In this document: positions 5,187 through 46,980 of the stretch, piece by piece
Position numbering within the stretch: position 1 is the stretch's first letter
Layout of the letters: each line of letters opens with the position of its first letter
Origin: an uncultured Alphaproteobacteria bacterium
Lineage (GTDB): Bacteria > Pseudomonadota > Alphaproteobacteria > CAAHEQ01 > UBA3637
Direction: 5' to 3'
Assembly (NCBI GenBank): GCA_905236245.1
Contig: CAJOPC010000021.1
Coordinates: forward strand, 1 to 48,963
Length of the DNA: 48,963 bases
Position numbers and translations under genes: made by a program
The notes under the pieces: model-generated
Databases searched by the model: none
Seen by the model: only the letters and a program-made list of their open reading frames with translations
Told to the model about the DNA's origin: nothing

Positions 5187-5198
5187 AAAATTCTCCCT

Positions 5199-5939: not shown

Positions 5940-5965
5940 GTGATTCCTTTCGTTATATGAAGGGC

Positions 5966-25881: not shown

Positions 25882-25931
25882 GTCGGTGAAATAGCACACA
25901 ATAAAAAAATCAAAAAAAATGAAAAAAAGTG

Positions 25932-25960
25932 TTGCAAAGGCCAAAAAAAGTATGTAAATT
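25932..25960 (+). promoter_or_regulatory. Candidate promoter for the secretion block
   Basis: TTGCAA (25932-25937), a 17-base spacer and TAAATT (25955-25960) precede the 1329-residue protein gene. Each box matches 4 of 6. An 8-base perfect palindrome ACCTAGGT at 25963-25970 lies over the expected transcription start and could be an operator half. Confidence 0.4.
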
Positions 25961-25994
25961 GGACCTAGGTACTTTTTTAAAGAGGGAGGATTGT

Positions 25995-30939: not shown

Positions 30940-30950
30940 AGGAGGAGAAA

Positions 30951-31772: not shown

Positions 31773-32637
31773 TAAAACTTTTTCAGGTATTATTTTAGGG
31801 GCTCTTTTTATGTCCTCGCTTGTTTGGGCGACATGTCCACCGGAAGGTCGTCCCAAGATTGTGATGGCTCCGTGGGCTGTGACCGATCCAATCCGTAATA
31901 TAACGGGTGCAGTTTTGACGTTGATATCCATGGGTAAGCATCCAAAACAAGTTGCAAAGATTGTTGGACACCAACAGGAAGTAGATGCTTTGATTGATGG
32001 TGAGGAGTCTTATAAGGTTGAGGAAGGAACGGGTTCGGGATCTGGTCCTTTGGAAATTAGCGCCTATACATATATCAAAGAAAAGATTTTTGATAAGCAA
32101 ATGTATTCTCCTTATTCAAAATTGAATAATAAGATTAAACCTTTATTAGGAGGTAGTAGTTCTTCCGGTTCCGGGGAATCCGGTGGTTCATCTGGCTCTG
32201 ATGGTTCTTCGGGCTCTAATGGTTCTTCGGGTTCTAGTGGTTCTTCGGGTTCAAGCTCGGGCGTTTCAAATTCAAGATTGCGTGAAGTTATCTTAGAAGA
32301 ATTTTTCATCGAAAATTCGGCTAAAAATACCGAGGAAAATCGTAAGAAAGTTCAACGTAATCGGGATGATTATTTAAGGGCTTTGGGAACTGAATATACG
32401 CGTTTGTCCAATACTGTTCAATCAAAAATCGGAGATGATATGGCGGCTGTTGTCGCAGCAGTTAGTGGAGATGGTTCTATAGGAATTGTGTCTGGAACCG
32501 ATCAGAGTTGGAAAGCTATTAACAAAGCAGTTTTGGTGGATTTGGCTTTGCAAATTGAAATGATGGAATTGGAAGCGGCACGGTTCTTGTCTGTTCAACC
32601 TATTCCAATGATTGATAATCCAGAACAAGGGTCGTAA
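31759..32637 (+). CDS. Secreted protein with Ser/Gly repeat linker (T4SS block)
   Basis: A 292-residue exported protein of unknown function. The signal peptide runs to about SLVWA (23). The N-terminal domain includes MAPWAVTDPIRNITGAVLTL. A long Gly/Ser linker (about 132-170) is encoded by near-exact 18-base repeats. The C-terminal helical domain begins LREVILEEFF, continues NRKKVQRNRDDYLRAL, and ends NKAVLVDLALQIEMMELEAA then RFLSVQP. That last segment looks like the end of VirB5/TrbJ-type proteins. Starts at 31759 (ATG ATG) are adjacent and I keep the first. The start overlaps the previous gene, so it is coupled. Confidence 0.7.
   Translation: MMIRNKTFSGIILGALFMSSLVWATCPPEGRPKIVMAPWAVTDPIRNITGAVLTLISMGKHPKQVAKIVGHQQEVDALIDGEESYKVEEGTGSGSGPLEISAYTYIKEKIFDKQMYSPYSKLNNKIKPLLGGSSSSGSGESGGSSGSDGSSGSNGSSGSSGSSGSSSGVSNSRLREVILEEFFIENSAKNTEENRKKVQRNRDDYLRALGTEYTRLSNTVQSKIGDDMAAVVAAVSGDGSIGIVSGTDQSWKAINKAVLVDLALQIEMMELEAARFLSVQPIPMIDNPEQGS
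32185..32256 (+). repeat. Four 18-base tandem repeats coding Gly-Ser-Ser-Gly-Ser linker
   Basis: Copies begin at 32185, 32203, 32221 and 32239 with the form GGTTCTTCGGGTTCTAGT and a few substitutions. They encode six-residue units of GSSGSX. Such perfect-length tandem copies can expand or contract by slippage without breaking the frame. Confidence 0.75.
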
Positions 32638-32647
32638 GGAGGATCAG

Positions 32648-33853
32648 ATGAAAAAGTTTTTAATTGGTTTACTACTTTTGGGCGTGAGCGTTTCTGCTGT
32701 CGCGGTGGATGAGCCGTACGATTCTCATGCGAGAGCTACAGGTTATAATATGGCCGCAGGAAAACAGCAGGGAACTGAATTGGGAAATAGAAATGATAAT
32801 CCTACTTATCGTAAAGATGATGATATCGCGGCTGGTATCAATATGGGGCTTGGTTCTATTTCCATGGTGGATTCTCTTTTGGGAATGTTTACTAAATTTA
32901 CAATAATGGGAAAACTTAATGAATGGGCTAAAGATGCCATTCAAGGTTTGATTTCTTCTGGAGAATCTAAGGCTGCTAACTGCCCGCTGTGTGCTACGAC
33001 ATTGGCAACGGAAGCAACAGGTGGCCCTGAAGATCCGGCTTATGCTGGGGCTTATGCTTCATTTTTGTTGTCTTGTGAGACAATGCCTCCTGTTATGTTA
33101 AAACCTGGTCCAAACGAGCAACATTCTTTTGAAGATACTGTTTGCCCGGTGTGTGTGGAATCTATTGGACATAAGTGGCCACCGATTCTTTTTGTGGCGC
33201 CGGATGTGATGGGTTTGGTTGTTTCAGGTGTAAAATTGCTCACAACACAATTTTTACAGGATGCTAATAAAGTTATTGCACAATTGGTTGGAGCAGAAGG
33301 CCATGTGACAGATAAATGGGTTGGTCCGCCATCTCGTAATACAGTTATTCAAACTATGGGCGAAGTTATTGCGGTTACTTCTCATACATTTGCTTCCTTG
33401 GGTTTTGATGCAAGTGAATACAAGGGAATAGAGGCTCCGGATAAAGCTTCTAGACGAGAATTATTTGAATATCGTTCTAAACAGATTGCCGAAGATCAAA
33501 GATCTTTAAAGAATGTGACACAAAAGAATTTGCGTTTGTTGTATCGTGCTCAACAACGTTCGGTAAAGGCTTTGACTCGTGCGATGGAATTAAAAAAGCA
33601 ATTAAATGTTTTGGCAGATGTGGATGCTAAGATTGATGCAAAATATGATAATTTGCCATCTTCTTTGTCGGCAGAAGCCAGTCGTCGGGCCTTGTTTGGT
33701 GCTTTGATGCAATTAAAATTAAGTATAGTGGCTGCGCGTACGAAAATGCGTTCAGAGGCTTTGGAATTAGAATTTAAACCCATGGTTAAACAAACAGAAG
33801 GTGTGAAATTAGCCACGGGAACTGCTGGGATAACAGACGGAGGCTCACAATGA
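32648..33853 (+). CDS. Secreted protein with paired CPxC motifs (T4SS block)
   Basis: A 401-residue exported protein of unknown function. The signal peptide MKKFLIGLLLLGVSVSAVAV ends near 19. The middle holds NCPLC (about residues 116-120) and VCPVC (about 166-170), with a further cysteine in LLSCETMPP. The two CPxC pairs are about 50 residues apart and could bind zinc or form disulfides. A hydrophobic region AGINMGLGSISMVDSLLGMF precedes them. The C-terminal half (from RRELFEYRSKQIAEDQ) is long-helical, with QRSVKALTRAMELKKQLNVL and ALFGALMQLKLSIVAARTKM. The ATG at 32648 follows AAGGAGGATCAG. Its stop overlaps the next start as ATGA. Confidence 0.7.
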   Translation: MKKFLIGLLLLGVSVSAVAVDEPYDSHARATGYNMAAGKQQGTELGNRNDNPTYRKDDDIAAGINMGLGSISMVDSLLGMFTKFTIMGKLNEWAKDAIQGLISSGESKAANCPLCATTLATEATGGPEDPAYAGAYASFLLSCETMPPVMLKPGPNEQHSFEDTVCPVCVESIGHKWPPILFVAPDVMGLVVSGVKLLTTQFLQDANKVIAQLVGAEGHVTDKWVGPPSRNTVIQTMGEVIAVTSHTFASLGFDASEYKGIEAPDKASRRELFEYRSKQIAEDQRSLKNVTQKNLRLLYRAQQRSVKALTRAMELKKQLNVLADVDAKIDAKYDNLPSSLSAEASRRALFGALMQLKLSIVAARTKMRSEALELEFKPMVKQTEGVKLATGTAGITDGGSQ

Positions 33854-35013
33854 AAAAATCATTCTTTTTGTTTGTTTGTTTAACTGCATTGGTTGCCGGA
33901 ACAGGACATGCGGCACGTTATGGGGTTACGCCAATGGTAGAACGTCAAATTGGCACGATAGGAAAGTATCTTCCTTCTCATAACGAGGCACTCGATAACG
34001 CGTTGACGGCACACAATTTGCTTAATAAGTTGCCGGAGTTACAGAAGGTGTCCGAGACAATGCGTACTTTGGGACTTACAACCAAAAAAATGCAAAAATA
34101 TTTTGATAGTTTGATGAAGTGTAATGAACAACGGTTTGCCGGACGTTTTAAGAATCCTCGGGCGATGGTTGATAAAGTGCGGCAGGAATATGCACAACGT
34201 GTTGACGCAATGCCAAAAGAGGCTGATTCGGATCCGGATAGTATTGTTCCGTTATCTATCAGACAACGTGATGAGCGTAGTAAGCGTAAGGCGCAGATTG
34301 AAAACGAGGTAATGACAGATGTTTTTAAAAATGGTGAAAAATATGGTGGTGAGATTATAGCTAAATCTTCTGCTGTTGCGCCCAAAGTGATGCCTCGAAA
34401 TTCCGAGTATAATGTGCTCCAAGAAATGGGAGATTTGGAGACGGGCTTGAATAATGCTAAGGTTGGTCAAGAACAGTTGGCATCCACGTTTAAGCGGATG
34501 CAAGACGATTTTTCTCGCCAACTTGAGAAATTAGGTTTGTCGTATCCGAATTTAGATCTGTCAAAGGGGGCTCAGGTTTTGTCAGTGCGTAAAGCGCTCA
34601 AAGAGGTGAAAAGTCGTTATCTAAACGAAGCTAAAGCATATATCGTGAAGTTGGACGAACAGGACGCGGCTCATCCAGATTTAGCTAAAGAACGTGAAGC
34701 GCGTTCTATGAATAAAGAAAAAGTTATGGCGCGGATGCAAGAGCAATTCCCGGAGGCTTTTTCTGAATTACAAAGTTTGGATTATCAAACCCCACAACAA
34801 CAGCAACAGTTGTTGGTTACGGCCTTGGAACAGGATAAGGAAGCCTTGGTGTATTTAACAGCTACAAATGCTGTAGAAGTAGATCAGCGCATGGCTGAAG
34901 GGCGTTCAAATCGAGCCATGGTCCAAGAGTTAGTCGATAAAGCCTTTAATTTGGTTGACGAAAATATGGAACAGGCGTTTGATTTTGATTTTAGTATGTG
35001 TCAATCAAGCTAA
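33850..35013 (+). CDS. Secreted helical protein (T4SS block)
   Basis: A 387-residue exported, almost entirely helical protein of unknown function. Signal peptide MKKSFFLFVCLTALVAGTGH, probable cleavage after A21. It contains several predicted coiled-coil runs, including MGDLETGLNNAKVGQEQLAS and RQLEKLGLSYPN. A Gln-rich stretch TPQQQQQLLVTAL lies near 317, and SMCQSS is at the C-terminus. Two cysteines (in MKCNEQRF and at the end) are the only ones in the mature protein. It differs from the five preceding proteins in lacking the linker plus terminal-helix layout. Coupled to the previous gene by ATGA. Confidence 0.68.
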   Translation: MKKSFFLFVCLTALVAGTGHAARYGVTPMVERQIGTIGKYLPSHNEALDNALTAHNLLNKLPELQKVSETMRTLGLTTKKMQKYFDSLMKCNEQRFAGRFKNPRAMVDKVRQEYAQRVDAMPKEADSDPDSIVPLSIRQRDERSKRKAQIENEVMTDVFKNGEKYGGEIIAKSSAVAPKVMPRNSEYNVLQEMGDLETGLNNAKVGQEQLASTFKRMQDDFSRQLEKLGLSYPNLDLSKGAQVLSVRKALKEVKSRYLNEAKAYIVKLDEQDAAHPDLAKEREARSMNKEKVMARMQEQFPEAFSELQSLDYQTPQQQQQLLVTALEQDKEALVYLTATNAVEVDQRMAEGRSNRAMVQELVDKAFNLVDENMEQAFDFDFSMCQSS

Positions 35014-35030: not shown

Positions 35031-35651
35031 ATGGCGCAGCAGTTGCAGTCAGCATGGCATTTGACGCGTTTGTTGATGGTATCGTGTTGGATTCTGTGGG
35101 TGTTGGTGTTTTTTGTGACTGTGACTCTTTTCCAGGCGGTCATACAGATTCATGTGGTTGCTCAGGTCGTTCGGCAAAACTCGATGTTTTTTGAGGATTT
35201 AAGCCAGGTCGTTCCGATTAATGCGGGTATTTGGACGCGTGTGGATGATATGTTGGTGCGCTTTTATTTGGAAATGCGTTATTCCATTATTCCGGATTTG
35301 GATGAAATGAAAAGACGGTGGGGAGAAGCAGGTATCGTATCATATTTGTCTTCTTCGTCGGCCTATAATGCATTTATGCCTAAACCCAATGAAATTTCCC
35401 AAATTGTTACGTCAACACCTCCGCGGGTTGTTGATGTGACGCGGGTGGAACGGCAAGGTGGTCGTTATTCTGTTGACTTTGATTTATATGAGTTTGATAA
35501 GATATCTAAATGGCGTAAAACAAGTAAGACGGCAACTTTGGACTTTACGTATGATCGTAGTAGAGTCTTGTTGGTTCCTGAGATGGGTAATCCCAATGGT
35601 TTTGTGATCACACGTGTCAGTGAATCTGAAGAAAAATCTGTGACGAATTAA
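35031..35651 (+). CDS. VirB8/DotI-like T4SS protein, copy 1
   Basis: Inner-membrane T4SS protein of 206 residues. One membrane segment (about 13-38, LLMVSCWILWVLVFFVTVTL) is followed by a periplasmic NTF2-like domain. It shows LDEMKRRWGEAGIVSYLSSSSAYNAFM, matching ELEERWGEDGIVYWMSVDSVFSQF in the second copy, and a C-terminal NPNGFVITRV that mirrors the VirB8 ending NPLGFTVTRF. The two copies look like diverged paralogs, as Legionella DotI and DotJ are. It follows an AAGGAG site 17 bases after the preceding gene. Confidence 0.75.
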   Translation: MAQQLQSAWHLTRLLMVSCWILWVLVFFVTVTLFQAVIQIHVVAQVVRQNSMFFEDLSQVVPINAGIWTRVDDMLVRFYLEMRYSIIPDLDEMKRRWGEAGIVSYLSSSSAYNAFMPKPNEISQIVTSTPPRVVDVTRVERQGGRYSVDFDLYEFDKISKWRKTSKTATLDFTYDRSRVLLVPEMGNPNGFVITRVSESEEKSVTN

Positions 35652-35659
35652 TTTTTTTG

Positions 35660-35688
35660 TTGGATATTTTATTTTTATGTGTTAAAGT
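35660..35688 (+). promoter_or_regulatory. Weak internal promoter candidate
   Basis: TTGGAT (35660-35665), a 17-base spacer and TAAAGT (35683-35688) lie before the small lipoprotein gene. The gap also changes in base composition. Support is consensus similarity only (3 and 4 of 6). Confidence 0.3.
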
Positions 35689-35718
35689 AGGAAAGGTATA
35701 GTAAGAGAGGTAATGAAA

Positions 35719-35895
35719 ATGAGAAAAGTTTTATTATTAGCAGTGGTTGTCGGAGCTGTTGTTTTAGCAGCATGTACATCTGTGTATGAAAAACCACCAG
35801 TTGGAATCGGAACAGAATATTCTGAATTAAAAAAGTCGCCTTGTGCTTGTTTAGAGCTGAAAAAGGCTCCAGAGGTGCCAGAGTGGTTCTCTTAA
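35719..35895 (+). CDS. Tiny VirB7-like lipoprotein
   Basis: A lipoprotein precursor of 58 residues from the ATG at 35719, or 60 from an ATG at 35713. I prefer 35719 because the AGAGAGG site is 8 bases away. The signal peptide ends in the lipobox LAAC; the mature form is only about 40 residues and has SPCACLELKKAPEVP. Size and place before virB8 and virB9 genes match VirB7, the lipoprotein that caps the outer-membrane core complex. DotD is much larger, so this is VirB7-like by size. Homology cannot be shown for so short a protein. Confidence 0.65.
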   Translation: MRKVLLLAVVVGAVVLAACTSVYEKPPVGIGTEYSELKKSPCACLELKKAPEVPEWFS

Positions 35896-35909
35896 AAAAG
35901 GGGGCCTAA

Positions 35910-36611
35910 ATGGCTGGTGAAACCACAGGACAACAAGGACATCACAAAATTTCTGCGCGAGAGGTATTACAGGAAGAAAGATACCTGTGGATGTCGCGCG
36001 CTTTTACAGTTATGGTCGTGTTGGCCATTATTTGTAATGTTATTTTGTTGATTGCTTTAGCTAATGTGACGCCGGTGATGCGTGTGCAGCCATTTTATTT
36101 GGAAATACAAGATAAAGATCATCAAGTTATCAATATTGTTCGGCCGAGTGCGGAGACTTTGGATTCCGATTTGTTAAAAGAATCTTTGTTGCGCCAATAT
36201 TTATTGGCTCGATTTGGAATGGGATCGGATTTAACCGAATTAGAAGAGCGTTGGGGTGAAGATGGAATTGTTTATTGGATGAGCGTTGATTCCGTGTTCT
36301 CACAATTTACAGAAGAAGCTCGTAAGTTATTGCGTTTGGCATATGAAGACAATTTGGTGAGAAGTGTGCGTATTTTGTCAGCAAAGAAGGCCAGCCAAGG
36401 TAGCACGGAAGGGGCTGCTGACGTGTGGGAAGTTAAATTGGAATTTCAAGATATAGACAGATCATCTGAAGAGCCAAAGTTTCGGTATTTTGTGGCAAAG
36501 GTTGAGGTTATTTTCCAACCGACACGGTCCGGTTTATTGTGGAGTCAAAGGTTGAAAAACCCGCTTGGTTTTACGGTAACCAGATTTGGTTTGACCGCTG
36601 TTGAAAAATAA
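35910..36611 (+). CDS. VirB8/DotI-like T4SS protein, copy 2
   Basis: Inner-membrane T4SS protein of 233 residues. An N-terminal cytoplasmic tail of about 28 residues is followed by a membrane segment (FTVMVVLAIICNVILLIALA) and a periplasmic VirB8 fold. Key stretches are LLRQYLLARFGMGSDLTELEERW, FRYFVAKVEVIFQPT and the ending KNPLGFTVTRFGLTAVEK, close to VirB8 C-termini. VirB8 nucleates assembly of the channel in the inner membrane. The ribosome site AAAAAGGGGG is good. A 130-base gap with an AGAAAATTTTTTCT palindrome separates it from the VirB9 gene. Confidence 0.82.
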   Translation: MAGETTGQQGHHKISAREVLQEERYLWMSRAFTVMVVLAIICNVILLIALANVTPVMRVQPFYLEIQDKDHQVINIVRPSAETLDSDLLKESLLRQYLLARFGMGSDLTELEERWGEDGIVYWMSVDSVFSQFTEEARKLLRLAYEDNLVRSVRILSAKKASQGSTEGAADVWEVKLEFQDIDRSSEEPKFRYFVAKVEVIFQPTRSGLLWSQRLKNPLGFTVTRFGLTAVEK

Positions 36612-36741: not shown

Positions 36742-38433
36742 GTGAAAAAGAAGGTATTTTTAAAGGGGGTTTTACCTTTATTAACAGGGGCAGTTTCTGC
36801 TATTTCTCTTTCTGCAATTGCGCAAAATTTGCCGGCGGATCCGCAAGCGGCTCAATTGGCCGATGCTATGGCTGGAACAGCGGGAGAATATGATGAAGTC
36901 AATTTGGATTATATTCATTCGTTGGGAATGCAACAAAAAGCGTGGAATAATCCATTAGCTCACATGGGTGCTGGTCAAACAAAACCAGGTTATTCAAAGT
37001 ATAATTGGACGCCTGATACTGTTTTGCCTGTGCGTGTGCGTGAAGGCATGATGACATTGATCAACTTGCCCGCATGGGAGTTGATAGAAAATGCACACAT
37101 TGGTTCTCCGGAATCTTTTTATGGTAAAGTGGTGGCGCCAAATTCAATCATGATTTATGCGGAACCTTCCTATATCGGTGTGGATAGTAACATGATTTTG
37201 TTTGGACGCTCTGGAAATCGATATGTGTTCTATTTGCGTAGTGAAACATTTAACACAGATAAAATCACACAATCCGTTGTGGATGTATTGGTTGGTCCGC
37301 GTTGGACGCCTGTCGCTGATGGTGGACAGATGCGTGAAGGAAATGGAACATCTACCATGGCCTCTATGCCGACAATCAATTTGGCTGGCGGATTTTCTAC
37401 GGGAACATCTGGTTCTGTTGCTAATGCTTCTGTGGCTCAAAATATCGCAGATGAGTGGAAAAATAGTGTTCCTATGGACCCTGAGAGCTTGAAATTTGAT
37501 TTGGATATGTTTTTGCCAAATCCTGATGATGTGGATATCGCTCCGGATAATATTTGGAGAGATAATATTTTCACCTATATTGATTTGGGACCGAAGGCAT
37601 TGACGATGACACAGCGTCCTGTGGTTAGTTTGTTAGTGCAAGATACAGAGGTGCCAGTCGGATTTAGAACGCGTGGCGCGAATAGTCGTTTGATTGTTGT
37701 AGAAGCAATTGGTGATTTAGTGTTGCGTAATGGTCAAAAAGTTATTTGTATTAAATTAAGACGTGATCCTGCGGCTGGTTTGGAATATACGGATTATAGC
37801 GGATTTAATGAAAAACCATATGCGTATTTGCAACAGTTGCCGTCACGTTCTGGAGATATGCCGAACCCAGAAGTGACTTTGAATAACGGATCTATGTTGC
37901 ATGGTAGCAGTCCATATGTTTCAGCACAAAATGGCGGTGGCGTTGTAAATGCTGGTTATGCTACGGAAACGGGTGGATTAAATCCATATGCAACGCCTTC
38001 ATATGCAATGCCTTCTTATTGTGCGGATACGACAGGCGCAAATCGTTGTGCTGCCGGTGGAACATGGCAGGATATTCGTCCAATTCCTGAATCTGCAGTC
38101 AATTATGCCCCGGCTTATGCTGGTGTAGAGGCTGCAACGGCTGATCGTGGAACGGTCTTGCCTGTGGCGGTCAATGAGACAATCGCTTTAGAGTTTGGTA
38201 CGGCGCCTGATATTGCAGACTTGGAAAAGCTGTGGGAGCAAGTATATGCGGCTAATGCAGATATTTTATCTGGATATGATCCATATTATTCCGTCGATGC
38301 TTCTGCAAACGGCGAGATGGCGGATCTGTTCCGTTTAAGGGCCGGCACTGTGAAAGATGCTGAAACCGGAGACGCCTTGTGCCGTAAGTTGGGTCGTCGA
38401 GGATACTCATGCTCGGTTGTGCGTATTAAATAA
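36742..38433 (+). CDS. VirB9/DotH-like protein with C-terminal SPOR domain
   Basis: Core-complex protein of 563 residues, GTG start with AAGGAGGA. A signal peptide ends near SAIA (27). The VirB9 N-terminal domain (about 85-185) shows VRVREGMMTLINLPAWELIE, APNSIMIY and RSGNRYVFYLRSE. The C-terminal VirB9 domain (about 266-343) has IFTYIDLG, PVVSLLV and LVLRNGQKVICIK. A Gly/Pro/Tyr linker then leads to about 469-563. There IALEFGTAPDIADLEKLWEQ and LFRLRAGTVKDAETGDALCR, with GYSCSVVRIK, match the SPOR peptidoglycan-binding domain. That domain is not part of the usual VirB9 or DotH and may anchor the channel to the wall. The virB10-like gene follows after 9 bases. Confidence 0.85.
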   Translation: MKKKVFLKGVLPLLTGAVSAISLSAIAQNLPADPQAAQLADAMAGTAGEYDEVNLDYIHSLGMQQKAWNNPLAHMGAGQTKPGYSKYNWTPDTVLPVRVREGMMTLINLPAWELIENAHIGSPESFYGKVVAPNSIMIYAEPSYIGVDSNMILFGRSGNRYVFYLRSETFNTDKITQSVVDVLVGPRWTPVADGGQMREGNGTSTMASMPTINLAGGFSTGTSGSVANASVAQNIADEWKNSVPMDPESLKFDLDMFLPNPDDVDIAPDNIWRDNIFTYIDLGPKALTMTQRPVVSLLVQDTEVPVGFRTRGANSRLIVVEAIGDLVLRNGQKVICIKLRRDPAAGLEYTDYSGFNEKPYAYLQQLPSRSGDMPNPEVTLNNGSMLHGSSPYVSAQNGGGVVNAGYATETGGLNPYATPSYAMPSYCADTTGANRCAAGGTWQDIRPIPESAVNYAPAYAGVEAATADRGTVLPVAVNETIALEFGTAPDIADLEKLWEQVYAANADILSGYDPYYSVDASANGEMADLFRLRAGTVKDAETGDALCRKLGRRGYSCSVVRIK

Positions 38434-38442: not shown

Positions 38443-41400
38443 ATGGCAGAGAATCGGAAAAGCTTATCAGAACAATCAAAACAACGGACAACTTGGATTT
38501 TATCCGTTATGGGTTTGATCATTTTGATGTTGTTTATTGTGGTTTTCTGCTCTTTAAGACAGAAAGAAGCTCCTGTTGTGCGTCAACAAGAACAAGATGT
38601 CTTTACGGTGACATCCACATTAGATGACGCAAATAATGGAGATTCGGGGATCCCCGATTGGAATGCGGAAAAAGCACAATTAATTATTAATCCCGCCGAG
38701 GTTGATTTAGGTAAAGCAATTTTGGGGGCGACAGCTGAGGCCAATGTTATTTTAAGAGCGGAAGATGCCCCGATTGTCTTTTTGCAAAAGTATCTAGCGG
38801 AAACGACGGATAATGGTTTTATCTTGACGGGTCCTTGTATGGAAAAAACGCAATTGAATGCGGGCGAGGAATGTGTATTGAAAGTTACTTGGACGCCTGT
38901 GACAGTGCGCAACATACAAAATGTATTGACAATTGTATGGCGGACTGATGATCCTCGAGTTTTGCGTGATCAAAGAAGCCAAATCCAATTAAGAGCAAGT
39001 TCGACAGATTCTAAAGATTGTGTTTGTTGTGAAATCGAAAAAGAAACAGAGCCTGTTGTTCCTCAAAAGGGTGTCAATGTTGCGACCGGTGAGGAAGTTG
39101 AAATCAAAGATGGCAAGGTCATCGTAGATGGTAAAGAGATCGAAGTCAAAGGAGAAGTTGCTATTGATCCGGACAGCGATATTTTTGTTATTGTTGAGCC
39201 AGAACGCATAGCATTAAGTTTGGATAATAAGTTTTTGGGTCGTGTTTCCGATCGTCGTACGGTCGTAGATGCAGAAGGTAAAACTATTGGTCGGTTATTA
39301 GGAGATGATACATTAGTTGATTCTAATTTCAATATTTTAGGGGCAGCGCTACCATTGGTTTCTGTATTAGATGCTCAAGGCGCCGTTATTGGTAAAACAG
39401 AGGTCACTCAAGATGGAAAAAATGTTCGTGTTGTTGATGCAGATGGCGAAATTGGAACTTTGAGAGTAGATGGATCTGTTGTGGATAGATCGGGCACTCA
39501 AATCGGTATGTTGCGCGATTGGGGTATGGCCATGGATTTGTCTGGCGAGTTGATGGGGGCGGTTTTGCCAACAGGTGTGGTTGTTAATTCAAACAAGAAA
39601 GCTTTAGGACATATTCAACAAAATGGCTTTATTTTGGATGATAGCGGTATCTTGATTGGTGGTGTTGTGCCAAAAGGTATTGCGGTCGGAACAGGATGTC
39701 GTTCATATGGAACGATTGCGTTAAATGGTCAGGTTAAGGATTCATATGGTCAGGTTGTTGGTCGAGTGATGTTGGATCGAGGTGTTGTTGATACAAACTT
39801 TAACGAGCTTGGTGCGGCAGTGTCTGCGGGTGTTATCGTTGATATGAAAGGCCAAGTAATTGGGTTTGTTAATTCAGAAGGTAAAGCTGTTGATGGTAAA
39901 GGTTCTTTAATTGGATGTATTGCGCCGAACGGAGTGGTGTCTGCAGGCAAGAAGAACGTAGGCGGTATTTTGCAAAAAGGTAAAGTGACAAGTAATACAT
40001 GCGGTGTGTTGGGTTCTGTATATCCAGATGCAAGTGTTATGAATCAAGATGTTCAACCCATTGGAAAAGTGCGTTCGGATGGATATGTTATTGACAAGCA
40101 AAATAACCGTTTAGGTATTGTTGTTCCTCGGGGCACAGTGCTTGCTGAAGCTTGTAATTTGATGGGTGTTATTTCTGTTACCGGTCAGGTGATTAATACA
40201 AAAGGGATGTCTATCGGATGTATCAATATGTCTCGCCAAGCTGTCGATACAGAAGGCCGAGAAATTGGTAAAATAACTCCGACGGGACCGGTATTGGCCG
40301 CAGATGGTACTTTGGTTGGTCGAGCAAGATATGATGGACGAATTATTGATAAATCCGGGAAAGTAATTGATTGTATTAATCCAGATGGTAGTAGCTCTGT
40401 GGGACAATCCGCAGGTAGTGGCCGTGGTAATGGTGCAATTTTTGATGATAATGGTTTGCCGACAGGGTGGACTTCTTTGGCTGGTAAATGTTATGATGAA
40501 CGCAATGATGAAGTTGGTACTATTGCTTTCAATGGTTGGGTTTCTGATAAAAACGGACGGTTGATCGGATTTATGCCGCCAAATGGTTTTGTTGTTTCTT
40601 CTTCTGGATCCATTTTAGGTAATTATAACGCATTGTTGGGCTTGGTTCAAAATTTGAACGGAGATGAGTTAGGTCGTGTTATGCCCGATTGGACGGTTTT
40701 AAATGTTGATGGAACTGAAATTTTAGGAGCTCTTATTCCTTCAAATGCTGGATTTGTTGATTTGTCTGGTAAAGTTATCGGGCGTTTAAATGGGGATGGT
40801 AAGGCAATCAATGCAGAAGGCAGTGTATTAGGTAAAGTTTTGGCTGATGGTGCTTTGTATGGAAATGATAATGCATTGCTTGGTGGTATGGTTCCTACCG
40901 GAGCGGTGTTGTCTTCATTGGGCGCATATGTTGGATTGGCCAATGAACAAGGAGATGTGTTGGCTCAAGGAACCCGTATTGGTCGTGCTCTTTCCAATGG
41001 ATTGGTTGTTACACCGGATAATCGTATATTGGGCCGTGTATGGATGCCAATGTCTGTTTTGGTGTCTGGAGAAGGTGTTATTGGAACGATTGTTCCTAAG
41101 GCTGTGAATAAATCTGATAGCACTGCTTATCAGTTGGCCGGATATGATAAGACGGGCAATTATCTTGGAAGTGTTTCTCCATTTGGTGTTTTACTATCTA
41201 GTGATGGGCGTTTAGGTGGTAGGGCCGTGCCGATTACCATGGTTGTTGATACCAGTCGTCGTTTTATTGGTTGGGTTAATTTTAAAGGACAAGTTGTAAA
41301 TGCCGAAGGGCAAGGTGTTGGTGTTTTAATGGGCGATGGCCTTGTTTTGGACAGCGACGGACATTTGGTTGGAACCGTTGTTCGTAAAGGAACTGTTGTG

Positions 41401-44400
41401 AATTCTCAAGGTGAATTTATGGGAATGGTTGGTGTTGATGGTGTGGTTCAAACTGCCAGTGGCGCGACACCCTTATTTATTGGGCCATCGGATGTTATGA
41501 TGTCGTCTGATTTTAAGACAGAAGGTCGGTTGTTGCCTATCGGTTTAGGAATGTCTGTAGTCAAAGGTTTACAAGGTTGGACACAGGCGGATGGCCAAAT
41601 TGCTAATGCCTCCGGCGTTGTTGGACGTGTGTTTGCGGATAATCGTGTTCAAGATGGGGCCGGTGTTATTACAAGCGGATATATCCCATTGGGGGCACCT
41701 TCTGTGCATGAGACGGTTTCCGGCATTGTGAATGAGGTAGGTAATGTTGTATCTGTGGCCGGTAAAACTTTGGGTGTTGTTTTAGCCCCGGATTATACAA
41801 TCCAGAATGGTTTGTTGGTTGGGCGTATACGCACGCAATCTGTATTTGTTCGGAATATAACGAATCCTGAACCTGTGGGCCCAGCCTCTTTGGATGGTTC
41901 TGTTTATCGGGAGCGCACGGTTAAAAGTGTTGCCGATTTAATGTTGAATAATTTTGCGGTAGATTCGAATAAGAAGGTAATGGCTTGTGCCGTTCCTGCT
42001 GGTTATGCGACGGCTGTGAATTTGACGCCATTGGGCGTAGAAGATGAAATGGGTTCAATCGCAAAAGATACAAAGGTTCAAGCACAAAGTTCCGGTTTGG
42101 GTATTACATATTTGAATTCCAGCACGATCAATGGTGGTATTTTTGCCCCAGGATTAGTGGTTGATAAAAATGGTGCTATTTTAGGCAGAAGTAATGCATT
42201 GAGTGATGTTGTGGATAAAAGCGGTAAAAAGATTGCTTCGCGGATGGCTTTTGATTCAGCTTTAACAGAAGAAACAATTTGGGCCGGCGGTGTAATTCGC
42301 ACAGGTGCGGTTATTGATGACTATGCTAAAAAGGTTGGCGCTGTCGCTGCGGATGGAACTTTAGTTGGTGTTGCAAACTCTTTTAAAGGGCGTATTTTGT
42401 CGGATGGTTCAGCCGTTGGTGTTTCGGAGCCGGAAGTTTATAATTCTATGCCATATGTCGGACATTTAACTTCTCAAGGAGTGCCGTTCAGCTATGAGCG
42501 AACGATTATTGGTCGCACAACATTGCAGGGCGATGTGATAGATGCTTCTAATAAAGTGCTTTTCCAAACATTGGATGATGGAACGATTTTAGGAAAGACT
42601 CGGCCTTTGGAAGGTGTTATTTTGCCGTTTAGAACAGCGGTATCTCAACAAAATACAGTTTTGGGAATCATGGATGGTGATGCGCATGTTCTTTCTCCAA
42701 GTGGGGAAGATGTTGGCCCTGTGGCGAATAATGGTGCGGTTAAAGGTGATCATGAATTAAAGGATATCGGTGGTTTAATTCCGGATACTTTGGTTGTGAA
42801 TAATTGTAAAGTTATTGGTCAAACAGCTTATAACGGTGAAGTGGTGAATGGTCAAGGTAATACAGTTGGTCGTATGCAACCAGATGAATGGGCGGAAGAT
42901 ACGCAAGGTAAAAAATTAGGGCGTTCGGTGCGCTATGGACCTGTGACAGGTCTAGAAACAACGGCATGGAATTATGTAGGGCGTGTGTTGCCAGATTCAA
43001 CGGTTGTGAATCCTGATGGTGTGTTGATTGGGTGCGCTCAAAATGATAAGATGGTGTTAGATTCTTCGGGCGAAGAAATTGGCCGTGTTAGAAGCCGTGG
43101 TCCAGTATTTAACAAAGAACACAGAATGTTTGGTCGTGTAGATGCTATGGGTCGAGTAGTTGGCGTGGACAATGAAATCCTTGGATTTATTGCTGGCCGT
43201 GAAGATAAAGCTTATAACTTTGAAGGTAAAGAAATTGGTTGGATGGCTTCACGTGAAGACGAGTTGTTCTTTAATCCGGATGGGACATTGGCCAAAGTTT
43301 TGAGTCGTGAAGGTGATGTGAAAGATGCTGATGGCAACTTCCTGTTTAGAATTGATCAAAAAACAGGCAAAATTTACGATAAATATGGCAATGAAATTGG
43401 TCAGTTAGGGGAAGAAAATTATGTGTACTTATATGATATGGAAGATCATATTGTTGCTCGGTTAGTGGGATGTGAATTGAAAAAGTTGCCCGAAGGGAAC
43501 AAGATGGGTATGTTATTAGCGGATGGAACAATCCAAGATGACAATGGTGAATTGATTTTATCTGCAACGCCCGATGGTAAAGTGTTTAATCCAGATGGAA
43601 CTCAGTATGGTCGTTTTTCCGGTATAGGTTTGGATTTGCGTCGATGCGGATTGTCGGGAACTAATGCTGCGGCTAGTCGTAAAATCGTTTGGGGCGGCAA
43701 ACCTTATACAGTTGAAAATGGTATGATTTTAAATGAACAGGGTGAGGGCATTGGTTATATTGATGAGAATGGTAGGCCTTATTGGTTTGATAAAGCTAAG
43801 CCAGAAGTTATTAAGCCTCGGGAAGATCCTCGGGTGCGTCCTGACTTGCCAAAGCCACGTAAGCTGACGCCAGAGGAACGCGAAAGAATGGTAGATATTG
43901 TGAATAAGCGCCGTAAATTGATGCAAAAGGAATTGGGTAAACCTGTCGAAATTCCCGGATATATTAAGGCGATGGCAAAGAAACACAAAGACAAGGATTG
44001 GGGGAGCGATAAGGCTGTTTCTACTTGGCCGGTTGATATGTCCAATGTGCTGTTAGCCGATAAGGCAATTCCTGCTGTTTTGGTTCGGTCTATTGATTCT
44101 CGTTATGCGGACGTGCCTGTGACGGCGATGGTAGAACGTCATATTTATGCTGAAGAAGGCCGGCGTATTTTGATCCCAGCGGGCAGCCATTTGATTGGTG
44201 AAGCGTCCGGAGGAGCTGCCGGTGCAGGTGGTATTTGGGATACTAGCAAAATTGCTATTTCATGGAAGCGGTTGATTCGTCCGGATGGGGCTGCATTTAA
44301 ATTTTCAGCAACATCAGGTGACGCACAAGGTCGTGGCGGTGTTGCGGCTTATTTGGATGATCGGTTCTTTGAAAAGTATGCTCGTCCGGTCTTGGCAACA

Positions 44401-44937
44401 TTTGCCGAAGGCGCCGTGTTAAAGGCAACCGAGTTGAATCAGTCTGATGAAGAAAAGGCAGCAGAGGCAAGTGCTTCGGGTGAAACGCCGGGTAAGCAGA
44501 CACGTGATATGTTGATTAAGAACTTTAAAGATATTTATGATCAGATGATCGAAGCCGCTGGTAGTGTTGAGACAATTGTTTATGTTCCATCCGGAACGCG
44601 GATAACCGTATTTGCCAATACCGATTTGTGGTTGCGTTCTGTGAGTGATGATGTGGAGGATGAGTCAAAAGGAAATTTGGTTGGAAATTTATTTGAGTCT
44701 AAAGATTCAGAAACAGGAGATGTCGAGCCATGGACTAAAGCTCGTTCAAAAGAGATGCAAGATGGTGCTGGCTCAGATGATGATATGGGCGGGGATTCCG
44801 GTGCATCGGGTGGTGGCCGGTTAAATCCTACGCCTGATGTGGATGCTATCTACGAGCCAGAATTGCCAGATGATTTAGATAATCGAACAGTTTTGCCTGT
44901 CGGTAGTCAAGAATCAGACGACAAGAATTATTTTTAG
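38443..44937 (+). CDS. Giant VirB10/DotG-like channel protein with 17-residue repeats
   Basis: T4SS scaffold protein of 2164 residues; VirB10 is usually about 400, Legionella DotG about 1050. Residues 1-23 are cytoplasmic and 24-46 span the inner membrane. Residues about 80-185 look like an immunoglobulin-type ASH domain (LIINPAEVDLGKAILG, LNAGEECVLKVTWTPV). From about 265 to 1790 a repeat of about 17 residues recurs, of the form G-x-V-x-x-x-G-x-V-[VIL]-[DN]-x-x-G-x-x-[IL]. A Pro/Lys-rich hinge (about 1785-1860) leads to the VirB10/TrbI domain (about 1861-2065). That has VLVRSIDSRYADVPVTAMVE, ILIPAGSHLIGE and VYVPSGTRITVFANTDLWL. An acidic tail follows. The repeat resembles fungal DUF3659-type units, not CagY or DotG repeats. 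Confidence 0.88.
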   Translation: MAENRKSLSEQSKQRTTWILSVMGLIILMLFIVVFCSLRQKEAPVVRQQEQDVFTVTSTLDDANNGDSGIPDWNAEKAQLIINPAEVDLGKAILGATAEANVILRAEDAPIVFLQKYLAETTDNGFILTGPCMEKTQLNAGEECVLKVTWTPVTVRNIQNVLTIVWRTDDPRVLRDQRSQIQLRASSTDSKDCVCCEIEKETEPVVPQKGVNVATGEEVEIKDGKVIVDGKEIEVKGEVAIDPDSDIFVIVEPERIALSLDNKFLGRVSDRRTVVDAEGKTIGRLLGDDTLVDSNFNILGAALPLVSVLDAQGAVIGKTEVTQDGKNVRVVDADGEIGTLRVDGSVVDRSGTQIGMLRDWGMAMDLSGELMGAVLPTGVVVNSNKKALGHIQQNGFILDDSGILIGGVVPKGIAVGTGCRSYGTIALNGQVKDSYGQVVGRVMLDRGVVDTNFNELGAAVSAGVIVDMKGQVIGFVNSEGKAVDGKGSLIGCIAPNGVVSAGKKNVGGILQKGKVTSNTCGVLGSVYPDASVMNQDVQPIGKVRSDGYVIDKQNNRLGIVVPRGTVLAEACNLMGVISVTGQVINTKGMSIGCINMSRQAVDTEGREIGKITPTGPVLAADGTLVGRARYDGRIIDKSGKVIDCINPDGSSSVGQSAGSGRGNGAIFDDNGLPTGWTSLAGKCYDERNDEVGTIAFNGWVSDKNGRLIGFMPPNGFVVSSSGSILGNYNALLGLVQNLNGDELGRVMPDWTVLNVDGTEILGALIPSNAGFVDLSGKVIGRLNGDGKAINAEGSVLGKVLADGALYGNDNALLGGMVPTGAVLSSLGAYVGLANEQGDVLAQGTRIGRALSNGLVVTPDNRILGRVWMPMSVLVSGEGVIGTIVPKAVNKSDSTAYQLAGYDKTGNYLGSVSPFGVLLSSDGRLGGRAVPITMVVDTSRRFIGWVNFKGQVVNAEGQGVGVLMGDGLVLDSDGHLVGTVVRKGTVVNSQGEFMGMVGVDGVVQTASGATPLFIGPSDVMMSSDFKTEGRLLPIGLGMSVVKGLQGWTQADGQIANASGVVGRVFADNRVQDGAGVITSGYIPLGAPSVHETVSGIVNEVGNVVSVAGKTLGVVLAPDYTIQNGLLVGRIRTQSVFVRNITNPEPVGPASLDGSVYRERTVKSVADLMLNNFAVDSNKKVMACAVPAGYATAVNLTPLGVEDEMGSIAKDTKVQAQSSGLGITYLNSSTINGGIFAPGLVVDKNGAILGRSNALSDVVDKSGKKIASRMAFDSALTEETIWAGGVIRTGAVIDDYAKKVGAVAADGTLVGVANSFKGRILSDGSAVGVSEPEVYNSMPYVGHLTSQGVPFSYERTIIGRTTLQGDVIDASNKVLFQTLDDGTILGKTRPLEGVILPFRTAVSQQNTVLGIMDGDAHVLSPSGEDVGPVANNGAVKGDHELKDIGGLIPDTLVVNNCKVIGQTAYNGEVVNGQGNTVGRMQPDEWAEDTQGKKLGRSVRYGPVTGLETTAWNYVGRVLPDSTVVNPDGVLIGCAQNDKMVLDSSGEEIGRVRSRGPVFNKEHRMFGRVDAMGRVVGVDNEILGFIAGREDKAYNFEGKEIGWMASREDELFFNPDGTLAKVLSREGDVKDADGNFLFRIDQKTGKIYDKYGNEIGQLGEENYVYLYDMEDHIVARLVGCELKKLPEGNKMGMLLADGTIQDDNGELILSATPDGKVFNPDGTQYGRFSGIGLDLRRCGLSGTNAAASRKIVWGGKPYTVENGMILNEQGEGIGYIDENGRPYWFDKAKPEVIKPREDPRVRPDLPKPRKLTPEERERMVDIVNKRRKLMQKELGKPVEIPGYIKAMAKKHKDKDWGSDKAVSTWPVDMSNVLLADKAIPAVLVRSIDSRYADVPVTAMVERHIYAEEGRRILIPAGSHLIGEASGGAAGAGGIWDTSKIAISWKRLIRPDGAAFKFSATSGDAQGRGGVAAYLDDRFFEKYARPVLATFAEGAVLKATELNQSDEEKAAEASASGETPGKQTRDMLIKNFKDIYDQMIEAAGSVETIVYVPSGTRITVFANTDLWLRSVSDDVEDESKGNLVGNLFESKDSETGDVEPWTKARSKEMQDGAGSDDDMGGDSGASGGGRLNPTPDVDAIYEPELPDDLDNRTVLPVGSQESDDKNYF
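39230..43820 (+). repeat. Tandem 17-residue protein repeat array within the VirB10-like gene
   Basis: Almost the whole middle of the gene encodes units of about 17 residues, for example GRVMLDRGVVDTNFNEL, then GAAVSAGVIVDMKGQVI, then GFVNSEGKAVDGKGSLI. Length divided by period suggests roughly 80-90 units, some interrupted; I did not count them singly. Copies are diverged at DNA level, so the array looks old and under selection for protein pattern. Confidence 0.8.
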
Positions 44938-44951: not shown

Positions 44952-45938
44952 ATGGGTGGCGGATTAGTTGATTCATACAGAGTTTTGGAAATGGCTTTGA
45001 AGCCCTTGTCATATTGGTATAGTCAAGACAATGTGGAAGATGTTGCAGTCAATAATCCTGGCGGTATATGGTTGCGTCTTCGAGGTCGTCATGCGCATCC
45101 GTGGCATTATTATGAAGATCCAAAACTAACAAGAGAATATTTGTATAATATTATGTATTTGATTGCAAATACATTGGAACAGCCGTTTGGTCCAGAGATT
45201 CAAATTCCGATGCTTTACACGGATTTGCCCGGCGGACACCGTTTCGGCGGTATTATGGGGCAAAATGTGCGTTATGATGAAAATGATTTGGAGGGCGGTA
45301 TTGCATTCGATATCCGTGTTTATCGGCCAGATGTTGATATTAAAATGGAAGAATTTGGTTTGGTCAAAGGTGGTCGCTTACATCAATTGAATCGTTTGAA
45401 AAATGTGGAAGATCCGGATGATCCGTATGAGCGATTGGTTTTATCTATCAAACGTGGAGATCATTTGTTGATCAGTGGTGGAACGGCGACCGGTAAAACA
45501 ACATTTTTAAATAATATCTTGAAATTATTGGATGAACACAAGCGTATTGTGACGGTTGAAGATACACGAGAATTGATTGTTCATCAACCGAATCATGTAC
45601 ATTTGTTGGTTTCTCGTGCTGGTGCGGCAAACAAATTTGGTTATGCTCAAGTGGTGGACTTGGTTAACCGTTTTACGCCGGATTCTATTATTTGCGGAGA
45701 GATTTCAACAGATAATGCTTCTGCTATATGGGAATTGATGAATACTGGTCACGATAACTGCTTTGCAACTATTCACGCAGATAGTGCGGAAACGGCTTAT
45801 CGCGCTTTTATCAGCCGAATTATGCATACAAATCGTGAGCTGGATCAAGATAAAACATTTAAAGAAATGAAAGAGCGGTTGCGTGTTGTTCAAATCAATC
45901 GTGATGGAAATATTCGTGCAATTACTGCTATTACTTAA
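44952..45938 (+). CDS. virB11: VirB11-type secretion ATPase
   Basis: Hexameric cytoplasmic ATPase that powers T4SS assembly and transport. The 328-residue protein has an N-terminal domain to about 150, then Walker A GGTATGKTT (about 175-183), the Asp box VTVEDTRELIV, Walker B DSIICGEI, and the His box NTGHDNCFATIHADSAETAYRAF. The motif set and length are those of VirB11; the related DotB and PilT proteins share the fold. It sits 14 bases after the virB10-like gene, the usual order. The AGGAG site is upstream of the ATG. Confidence 0.93.
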   Translation: MGGGLVDSYRVLEMALKPLSYWYSQDNVEDVAVNNPGGIWLRLRGRHAHPWHYYEDPKLTREYLYNIMYLIANTLEQPFGPEIQIPMLYTDLPGGHRFGGIMGQNVRYDENDLEGGIAFDIRVYRPDVDIKMEEFGLVKGGRLHQLNRLKNVEDPDDPYERLVLSIKRGDHLLISGGTATGKTTFLNNILKLLDEHKRIVTVEDTRELIVHQPNHVHLLVSRAGAANKFGYAQVVDLVNRFTPDSIICGEISTDNASAIWELMNTGHDNCFATIHADSAETAYRAFISRIMHTNRELDQDKTFKEMKERLRVVQINRDGNIRAITAIT

Positions 45939-45949: not shown

Positions 45950-46504
45950 TTGAGAACGGTACCGACTTTGTATATTGCACAAACTGCTGATGGTATTGGA
46001 CTTCCTTTGCCGTCATATACGAGTCGTTATCATGTGGGATTAAATCTTCAAGCTGCAATTCCTTCTGCAATGCGATTGGAGCCAGGGGAAAGAGTTGTTG
46101 TTCCTTGTGGTTTTGAGATAGGAATTCCAGATGGTTATTGTGGTCAAATTTTAAGTAATGCCGCTATGGCGCAAGCACACGGATTGATTATTTTGGGTGG
46201 TCCTCAACTTGTGCATCCGGCAGATCGTGGTCCTTTATTTTTGTTGCTTCAAAATATATCGGCAAAACAGGTTGTGTTGCATCGTGGAGATGTTGTGGCA
46301 CAATTGATTATTTGCCCCGTTGTTCAAGTTGCGTGGCGTGATTTAACAAGAAAGGATAGTTATTTGGCTCCCACAACAGATGTTGATGGCTTAGTTTTAG
46401 ATGCAGCAGAAGTTCAAAGTGAAGGAGCAACAGAAAAAACACCCTCTAAACGGGTTTATAAAAGCCCCAGGAATCGATTTGCAAGTGAAGAGGAAGAAGA
46501 ATGA
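45950..46504 (+). CDS. Degenerate dUTPase-fold protein in the T4SS block
   Basis: A 184-residue protein starting at a TTG behind AAAGGAGAAAAGT. It has a dUTPase/dCTP-deaminase-type trimer core (about 5-125). Motif I-like YHVGLNLQAAI replaces the usual AGxDLxA. PCGFEIGIPDGYCGQIL is the strand before motif II, and HRGDVVAQLII resembles motif IV. The motif III region reads GGPQLVHPADRGPLFLLLQN, with His where the catalytic Asp and Asp where the Tyr should be. The C-terminal glycine-rich motif V is absent, replaced by an acidic and basic tail. It is therefore probably not an active dUTPase. It is encoded just after virB11 and coupled by ATGA to the SH3b gene. Confidence 0.72.
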   Translation: MRTVPTLYIAQTADGIGLPLPSYTSRYHVGLNLQAAIPSAMRLEPGERVVVPCGFEIGIPDGYCGQILSNAAMAQAHGLIILGGPQLVHPADRGPLFLLLQNISAKQVVLHRGDVVAQLIICPVVQVAWRDLTRKDSYLAPTTDVDGLVLDAAEVQSEGATEKTPSKRVYKSPRNRFASEEEEE

Positions 46505-46980
46505 AAATCGTTAGAATTTGTTTGTTGTTGGGCTTTTTTTTCGTTTTGCCAACCCTCGCGGCGGAAAATTTAGGTTTTTATTCTTTAAAGACGGATTTGG
46601 TAAATTTACGTGCCGGTCCGGCAGAACGTTTCCCCATTAAATGGGTTTATCAAGAGCGTAATTATCCTGTAGAGGTTATTGATACTTTTGAAATGTGGCG
46701 TCAGGTTCGAGAGGCAGATGGAACGATTGGTTGGATACATGAAAAGATGTTAAAGCCCACTCGGTATGTGGTGATTCAAGATGAGGACAAATTGTTGTCT
46801 AGTCCTAGTGTGTCTGGTAAAGTTATTGCCTATGTTCAGCCGGGTGTTATTGGACATGTGCATTCTTGCCCGGCCGGGGATTATTGCCTTTTGCAATTTG
46901 TTCACAAAGATCATAAAGTTGAAGGATGGTTTCCTCGTCGTCTTGTGTGGGGGCTTTATGAAGGCGAAGTTATTGAATAA
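46501..46980 (+). CDS. Exported SH3b-domain protein
   Basis: A 159-residue protein with a signal peptide (cleavage near TLAA, 20). Two bacterial SH3-like domains follow, the first with VNLRAGPAERFPIKWVY, EMWRQVREADGTIGWIHEKML, the second ending in VEGWFPRRLVWGLYEGE. Bacterial SH3b domains often bind peptidoglycan or proteins in the envelope, so it could help a channel pass the wall. It could equally be an unrelated SH3 protein of the kind common in alphaproteobacteria. It is the last gene of the block, and its end abuts the convergent lipoprotein gene. Confidence 0.8.
   Translation: MKIVRICLLLGFFFVLPTLAAENLGFYSLKTDLVNLRAGPAERFPIKWVYQERNYPVEVIDTFEMWRQVREADGTIGWIHEKMLKPTRYVVIQDEDKLLSSPSVSGKVIAYVQPGVIGHVHSCPAGDYCLLQFVHKDHKVEGWFPRRLVWGLYEGEVIE

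What the first reader, a model, noticed from the sequence alone, without database searches (positions are those of the whole stretch)
38443..44937. VirB10-like protein of 2164 residues with a long 17-residue repeat array
A repeat of pattern G-x-V-x3-G-x-V-[VIL]-[DN]-x2-G-x2-[IL] fills about 1500 residues between the membrane anchor and the VirB10 cap domain. CagY of H. pylori and DotG also carry repeats here, but of different sequence. If each unit were one coil of a beta-solenoid (about 0.48 nm rise), 80-90 units would give roughly 40 nm, longer than a normal periplasm. The array may therefore fold back, form a wide wall around the channel, or extend outside.
Basis: partly seen in the sequence, partly recalled or inferred. 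Interest (0 to 1): 0.8.

Follow-up and report, generated by a model that had tools for sequence, protein, structure and literature searches.

The report
Secretion-channel protein with stapled hairpin array
A structural protein of a bacterial secretion machine in uncultured gut bacteria carries an unusually long rod-like stretch of about 85 small beta-hairpins, grouped in threes and apparently stapled by disulfide bonds; in relatives the same protein is made as two separate pieces, although it is known as the one part that ties the two membranes together.

Summary
In detail: ORF 38443-44937 (+) is a 2164-aa VirB10/TrbI protein with about 85 units of 17 aa (aa 249-1787) between the inner-membrane anchor and the TrbI cap. 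The interpretation needs changing. The unit is a beta-flower petal (Pfam PF21785, E 6e-70), not a CagY, DotG or pentapeptide repeat. Coevolution shows antiparallel hairpins, not one parallel solenoid coil per unit. AlphaFold2 gives confident all-beta models (pLDDT 88-90) with no global match in PDB or BFVD. New here: (1) a strict three-unit (51-aa) super-repeat, the only period that predicts held-out clades; (2) array cysteines occur almost only at two positions of that super-repeat, and all 134 testable cases have the partner exactly 73 residues on, so disulfide staples probably join successive modules; (3) units keep positional identity and length is nearly fixed within the genus, unlike CagY; (4) in a supported sister clade VirB10 is two genes: an anchored array, and a signal-peptide array with the cap. 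In three 100%-complete genomes the second gene holds the only cap. Best reading: a stiff, stapled periplasmic scaffold in a chromosomal T4SS.

The parts
38443..44937 (+). VirB10/TrbI protein, 2164 aa
38497..38553 (+). inner-membrane anchor, aa 19-37, positively charged N-terminus (array therefore periplasmic)
   Evidence: hydropathy
38689..38937 (+). Ig-like ASH / choice-of-anchor-D-like domain, aa 83-165, with invariant Cys 132 and 144
   Evidence: PF15780 E 2e-4 (below cut-off); NF012200 E 3e-4; Cys
39187..43803 (+). 17-aa beta-hairpin array, aa 249-1787, about 85 units (regular to about aa 1600, degenerate after)
   Evidence: PF21785; structure
39523..40278 (+). five consecutive 51-aa three-hairpin modules picked out by the structural aligner (aa 361-612)
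   Evidence: block boundaries; super-period
39697..39918 (+). predicted disulfide staple Cys419-Cys492 (73 residues apart)
   Evidence: both present or both absent in all 24 aligned proteins; 134/134 rule
40000..40221 (+). predicted disulfide staple Cys520-Cys593
   Evidence: phi 1.0
40153..40374 (+). predicted disulfide staple Cys571-Cys644
   Evidence: 23 of 24 each
42805..43035 (+). predicted disulfide staple Cys1455-Cys1531 (five units apart)
   Evidence: 23 of 24 each
43471..43647 (+). co-varying Cys1677-Cys1735 pair in the degenerate end of the array
   Evidence: phi 0.91
43804..44037 (+). charged, proline-containing linker between array and cap, aa 1788-1865
   Evidence: sequence
44038..44646 (+). 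VirB10 cap (TrbI domain; aligns to ComB10 2bhv and TrwE), aa 1866-2068
44647..44934 (+). acidic C-terminal tail, aa 2069-2164, poorly conserved
   Evidence: sequence
35031..35651 (+). first VirB8-like protein
   Evidence: PF04335 E 9e-7
35910..36611 (+). second VirB8-like protein
   Evidence: PF04335 E 5e-13
36742..38433 (+). VirB9 (CagX), 563 aa, extended C-terminus
   Evidence: PF03524 E 3e-15
44952..45938 (+). VirB11-type ATPase
   Evidence: PF00437 E 3e-22

Best explanation
This is the VirB10 subunit of a chromosomal, scattered T4SS in uncultured gut Alphaproteobacteria. Its flexible linker has been replaced by a long stiff beta-hairpin array that works as a periplasmic scaffold between inner-membrane complex and outer-membrane cap. 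Shown from sequence: 17-aa units, each one beta-hairpin of the beta-flower type (strand A = positions 16,17,1,2,3; strand B = positions 8-10; tip D-x-x-G); units grouped in threes into 51-aa modules that run from strand B of one 'phase-1' unit to strand A of the next; loss of the A-B hairpin coupling at the module boundary ([VIL]-P-x-G instead of a D/N-G turn); cysteines almost only at phase-1 position 14 and phase-0 position 2, always in pairs 73 residues apart. Inferred: each module folds as a six-stranded, three-hairpin unit whose two edges meet; the cysteines form disulfides that staple a module to the next and stiffen the rod; several copies line the stalk as a wall. In the split clade the rod is made from two separately exported halves that must associate non-covalently, so a covalent membrane-to-membrane link is not needed there.
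For: VirB10 identity and neighbours VirB8, VirB8, VirB9, VirB11. Beta-flower family E 6e-70. AF2 pLDDT 88.5, pTM 0.84 over 895 aa and 89.7 / 0.77 over 210 aa. Antiparallel couplings. Period three: unit similarity by lag and in every group, permutation p 0.001, the only period to improve held-out likelihood on the split clade, and block boundaries in the structural alignments. Module closure: phase-1 position 7 to next phase-1 position 3 ranks 2/690 and 8/690 in two separate protein sets and 230th or lower for other phases; position 4-8 coupling is near zero only in phase 1. Cys: 214 and 213 at the two sites, the rest under about 35 together, 134/134 paired, with phase assigned Cys-masked; phi 1.0 by column. 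Near-constant length within the genus (cap begins at aa 1831-1871 at 45-62% cap identity), positional conservation. Split: 19/19 second genes have a ribosome-binding site and signal peptide; only VirB10 cap in three 100%-complete genomes; clade support 99/97.
Against: No coordinates of the AF2 models were available, so strand order, closure and rod path were not seen. Foldseek and VIA gave no global match (TM at most about 0.24, Z at most 4.5). Coupling depth is low (effective 184-380 windows for the phased analyses). Pfam describes closed four-, five- and six-petal rings, not three-petal modules. Disulfide formation is inferred. Assignment as a wall around the channel rests only on VirB10's known place in T4SS. 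No standard VirB6 (PF04610) was found in an 85%-complete genome. All genomes with the array are MAGs.
Confidence: 0.6

Rival explanations
1. The array is a string of closed four- or five-petal beta-flowers, as Pfam describes, like beads, giving a flexible chain rather than a rod.
For: PF21785 (5-fold) and PF21784 (4-fold) both above cut-off; relatives in other families have secreted stand-alone proteins of five or six near-identical units.
Against: The sequence super-period is 3; periods 4 and 5 do worse than no period on held-out data; no linkers every 4-5 units; cysteine pairs join units n and n+5 at fixed phase; pTM 0.84 over 895 aa argues against loose beads.
Confidence: 0.15
2. A helical beta-hairpin ribbon (Rhs/teneurin YD-shell-like or choline-binding-like) that winds into a hollow tube or cocoon, with turns stapled by the disulfides, so that the array makes a conduit or wall by itself.
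For: Foldseek's best hits are YD shells with E down to 5e-35; RHS_repeat above cut-off in a relative; the cysteine pairing puts unit n next to unit n+5.
Against: TM only about 0.1 to Rhs shells; module-specific couplings and phase-restricted cysteines fit discrete three-hairpin modules better than a uniform ribbon.
Confidence: 0.15
3. Each 17-aa unit is one coil of a parallel beta-solenoid.
For: Regular 17-aa period with G, D/N and branched residues; two short strands per unit.
Against: Couplings are antiparallel and i to i+17 coupling occurs at position 1 only; Foldseek neighbours are mostly antiparallel hairpin folds: Rhs/YD shells, teneurins, propellers, fascin, with TcdA CROPs and choline-binding repeats the hairpin-solenoid exceptions.
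Confidence: 0.05
4. The array is an exposed, surface-variable region (adhesin or antigenic-variation type, as proposed for parts of CagY).
For: CagY repeats lie at the same place in VirB10 and CagY has been reported on sheathed tubes (PMC6520456).
Against: No DNA repeats, near-fixed length in the genus, unit-by-unit positional conservation at 33-60% identity.
Confidence: 0.05

Closest known systems
VirB10 / TrbI / TrwE / ComB10 (PF03743)
   Same: anchor, C-terminal cap, gene neighbours VirB8-VirB9-VirB11
   Different: linker of minimized systems is about 125 residues and Pro-rich (PMC6520456); here about 1540 residues of folded hairpins plus an Ig-like domain, and in one clade the protein is two genes
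CagY (H. pylori) multiple-repeat region
   Same: VirB10 homologue with a >1300-residue repeat region at the same place (PMC6520456)
   Different: unrelated repeat; CagY repeats are DNA-level direct repeats that recombine and vary, here no DNA repeats and near-constant length in the genus
DotG/IcmE (Dot/Icm)
   Same: VirB10-like C-terminus with repeats before it
   Different: DotG has pentapeptide repeats (PMC7511231); none found here
Beta-flower proteins (PF21784, PF21785, PF21786; clan CL0395)
   Same: unit sequence, D-x-x-G hairpin tip, short antiparallel strands (PMC10584680)
   Different: described flowers are single domains of 8-12 strands with 4-6 petals; here about 85 petals in 3-petal modules with staple cysteines, in a T4SS subunit
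DUF3659 (PF12396) and RHS/YD repeats (PF05593)
   Same: related hairpin repeats; a split-clade relative matches both above cut-off
   Different: window protein is below cut-off for DUF3659 and does not list RHS_repeat
Rickettsiales rvh T4SS
   Same: duplicated VirB8, chromosomal, scattered gene blocks
   Different: the 2009 Rickettsia survey reports one split VirB6 gene; no split VirB10 was found in the passages read (PMC2653234); array not reported

Membership tests
VirB10/TrbI | TrbI cap domain PF03743 above cut-off | tested here: met
   103.6 bits vs 35, aa 1870-2064; ComB10 2bhv E 7e-16
VirB10/TrbI | N-terminal single inner-membrane anchor | tested here: met
   aa 19-37
VirB10/TrbI | encoded with VirB8, VirB9, VirB11 | tested here: met
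VirB10/TrbI | one polypeptide holding both anchor and cap | tested here: met
   met in the window protein; not met in the sister clade where anchor and cap are separate genes
VirB10/TrbI | oligomeric ring forming the outer-membrane channel | not testable with these tools
   needs structure of the complex
Beta-flower PF21785 | profile match above curated cut-off | tested here: met
   232.6 bits vs 38, 10 stretches
Beta-flower PF21785 | [DNEQ]xxG motif at hairpin tip | tested here: met
   positions 11-14 D-x-x-G lie in the strand B to strand A loop
Beta-flower PF21785 | closed 4-, 5- or 6-petal ring | tested here: inconclusive
   coevolution and periodicity point to 3-petal modules; no coordinates
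CagY multiple-repeat region | CagY repeat families / DNA-level direct repeats | tested here: not met
   no such Pfam family at E<=1; no tandem repeat in the gene
DotG pentapeptide repeat | five-residue repeat | tested here: not met
   period is 17; no pentapeptide family
DUF3659 PF12396 | match above curated cut-off | tested here: not met
   14.6 vs 24.8 bits; relative L101 gene 1 reaches 139 bits
RHS/YD repeat | PF05593 match and YD-shell fold | tested here: inconclusive
   relative matches 41.5 bits vs 22; Foldseek E 5e-35 but TM 0.1
Parallel beta-solenoid, one coil per unit | parallel i to i+17 contacts | tested here: not met
   antiparallel couplings, apart from position 1

The most novel reading that the evidence does not exclude
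The array is a new beta architecture, a stack of disulfide-stapled three-petal beta-flower modules, that builds the periplasmic wall of a T4SS; and VirB10, described as the only T4SS subunit that physically bridges both membranes, can work without a covalent bridge, because a whole clade makes it as an anchored array plus a separately exported array with the cap.
Probability: 0.4. Interest if true: 0.85.

Novelty: new variant of a known kind. Interest (0 to 1): 0.7.

Why it matters
[quoted passage not shown] A clade in which anchor and cap sit on separate polypeptides makes that claim directly testable. The array also places the recently named beta-flower fold, so far without assigned function, in a defined machine and shows how it can be extended into a stapled rod; the paired cysteines give distance restraints that a structure can confirm quickly. 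Very long VirB10 linkers (CagY, DotG, this one) now appear with three unrelated repeat types, which suggests a convergent need for a wide periplasmic cylinder in some T4SSs.

Tried and rejected
One-coil-per-unit solenoid. Hypervariable CagY-like array: no DNA repeats, near-fixed length in the genus. Fold-back with the apex at the split point: the split-clade second gene aligns from about aa 365 of the window protein, near the front and not the middle of the array, so the split gives no support for fold-back; global alignment of repeats is uncertain. PDB and BFVD fold searches: no global match; not taken as proof of a new fold. Searches failed for coordinate or length reasons; one search was an ill-judged query and yielded nothing. 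Relaxase searches PF03432 and PF03389 negative, but the genome is 85% complete. Papers: none combining VirB10 with beta-flower or RF32 with type IV secretion and Alphaproteobacteria.
Full report
OBSERVATION. The ORF at 38443-44937 (+) encodes 2164 aa. It has one N-terminal TM segment (aa 19-37), an Ig-like ASH/choice-of-anchor-D-like region (aa 83-165, weak hits), the repeat array, a charged linker, a TrbI/VirB10 cap (aa 1870-2064, E 1.6e-29; ComB10 structure 2bhv E 7e-16) and an acidic tail. The array autocorrelates at 17 residues. An iterated profile tiles aa 249-1787 into 90 units, 65 exactly 17 aa long, the last ten degenerate; the consensus is GRVMPDGTVVDANGNVI. On shuffled columns 2.3 positions pass the threshold against 80 observed.

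SETTING. Upstream lie two VirB8-like genes and VirB9, downstream VirB11. VirB3-VirB4 lie on another contig beside gatA/gatB, and VirD4 on a third. The genome is 1.12 Mb, 85% complete; relatives are mostly herbivore-gut MAGs titled Alphaproteobacteria. That they belong to GTDB order RF32 is my recollection and was not tested. No relaxase of families PF03432 or PF03389 and no TrbL/VirB6 PF04610 was found. VirB10-domain proteins without the array exist in the same class (L044, L045, L049 and the Microvirga copies, 530-670 aa).

WHAT THE UNIT IS. Pfam assigns the array to Bflower_2 (PF21785, E 6.4e-70) and Bflower (PF21784), the beta-flower fold named in 2023 (PMC10584680). DUF3659 is sub-threshold here but strong in a split-clade relative, which also matches RHS_repeat. 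No CagY, DotG or pentapeptide family appears at E<=1. AF2 on aa 236-1130 (23 sequences) gave mean pLDDT 88.5 and pTM 0.84, all beta; on aa 334-543 (43 sequences) 89.7 and 0.77. Per unit there is a 5-residue strand A (positions 16,17,1,2,3), a 4-residue turn, a 3-residue strand B (8-10) and a 5-residue turn with the D-x-x-G motif. Foldseek hits are mostly antiparallel hairpin folds (Rhs shells, teneurin, propellers, fascin) with TM about 0.1, and VIA Z is at most 4.5; the viral library gave nothing better.

ANTIPARALLEL, NOT SOLENOID. Direct-coupling analysis on 2623 windows (effective 1472) ranks antiparallel pairs 8-16, 11-15, 4-8, 4-10, 9-17, 10-16, 3-9; an i to i+17 coupling appears only at position 1.

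THREE-UNIT SUPER-REPEAT. After removing the consensus, unit similarity is raised at lags 3, 6, 9, 12, 15, 18 and not between. Lag 3 stands out in every group of relatives, and lags 6 and 9 in most. Phase-1 units carry [VIL]-P-x-G where the others have a D/N-G turn (permutation p 0.001). A periodic model trained on unsplit proteins and tested on the split clade improves only with period 3 (-35.50 to -35.19 nats per unit over 1106 units; periods 2 and 4-7 are worse than period 1). The structural aligner, which knows nothing of this, cut the models into blocks aa 360-411, 412-460, 463-510, 512-560, 563-612: the same phase.

MODULE AND STAPLES. With cysteines masked, coupling between phase-1 position 7 and position 3 of the next phase-1 unit (47 residues on) ranks 2 of 690 and 8 of 690 in two separate sets of proteins and only in that phase; the in-unit turn coupling 4-8 is near zero only in phase 1. 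So the module runs from strand B of one phase-1 unit to strand A of the next, six strands, with its two edges close together (inferred). Cysteines in the arrays sit at phase-1 position 14 (214) and phase-0 position 2 (213), almost nowhere else; in all 134 cases where the place 73 residues on lies in the same run, it is Cys. In the family alignment the pairs 419-492 and 520-593 are gained and lost together (phi 1.0), 571-644 and 1455-1531 are each in 23 of 24. Disulfides stapling successive modules are the natural reading (inferred). A caveat: many windows are related, so 134 is not a count of independent events.

CONSERVATION AND LENGTH. Homologues at 33-60% identity align unit by unit with few indels between aa 240 and 1640; length changes cluster at aa 1650-1740. 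Within the genus the cap starts at aa 1831-1871. Elsewhere the protein reaches 2514-2831 aa or shrinks to 1273. This is unlike CagY, whose repeats recombine (PMC6520456).

SPLIT VIRB10. In about 20 loci gene 1 carries anchor, Ig-like domain and array (frames of 1051-1842 aa where complete) and ends in a conserved C-terminus, and gene 2 starts at its end with a ribosome-binding site (mostly GGAGGAACT), a signal peptide (typically ending A|Q), an array and the cap. All 19 second genes examined have these signals; several start with TTG or GTG. Three genomes at 100% estimated completeness have no other VirB10 cap. Twenty split rows form a clade with support 99/97, and array-bearing caps separate from array-less ones with 98/91. 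The gene-2 signal peptide shows that the array is exported. Gene 2 aligns from about aa 365 of the window protein, so gene 1 of the split clade has extra array. A sequencing frameshift is made very unlikely by the many independent MAGs, the conserved end of gene 1 and the new signal peptide.

MECHANISM. VirB10 bridges the inner-membrane complex and the outer-membrane core, where its cap makes the channel (PMC12857230). The array replaces a short Pro-rich linker with a stiff, stapled rod. If VirB10 here is multimeric as in other systems, a dozen or more rods would surround the stalk. In the split clade the two rod pieces must bind each other or a partner. Shown: anatomy, periodicity, cysteine pairing, split. 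Inferred: disulfides, module closure, wall role. Unknown: rod length, hollow or solid, substrate.

VERDICT. Observation confirmed; solenoid reading replaced; a new variant of VirB10 with two points of real interest: the stapled three-petal beta-flower array and the natural two-gene VirB10.

Noticed in passing
window 25929-35013: Block of six consecutive proteins (1351, 326, 273, 292, 413, 387 aa) with N-terminal hydrophobic segments like signal peptides and no significant Pfam match, directly before the VirB8 genes; probably unrecognised T4SS parts or substrates.
   Followed up: partly
window 35031-36611: Two adjacent VirB8-like genes, as in Rickettsiales; two are also seen in other array-bearing families.
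   Followed up: partly
window 36742-38433: VirB9 is 563 aa with a C-terminal extension that weakly matches SPOR (E 0.006), unusual for VirB9.
   Followed up: no
G000:C24:7353-10098 and G000:C4:83533: VirB3-VirB4 and VirD4 lie apart from the window, VirB3-VirB4 among housekeeping genes: a scattered chromosomal T4SS.
   Followed up: partly
L142 (G083), reverse strand 3-6052: VirB10 may be in three or more pieces: an array end, a 411-aa signal-peptide array with 20 units, then a 1349-aa frame with the cap; assembly error not excluded.
   Followed up: partly
L035 (G022): Array ORF broken into 594 and 1605 aa with one TGA between; could be a MAG error or a recent break.
   Followed up: no
L146, L147, L148 (G287, G059): Small secreted proteins of 5-6 near-identical units, stand-alone beta-flowers in another alphaproteobacterial family; possible source of the array.
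   Followed up: partly
window 32184-32252: 18-bp tandem repeat encoding a Ser/Gly-rich stretch in the 292-aa protein.
   Followed up: no
window 45950-46980: dUTPase-like and SH3-domain secreted protein genes follow VirB11 closely.
   Followed up: no
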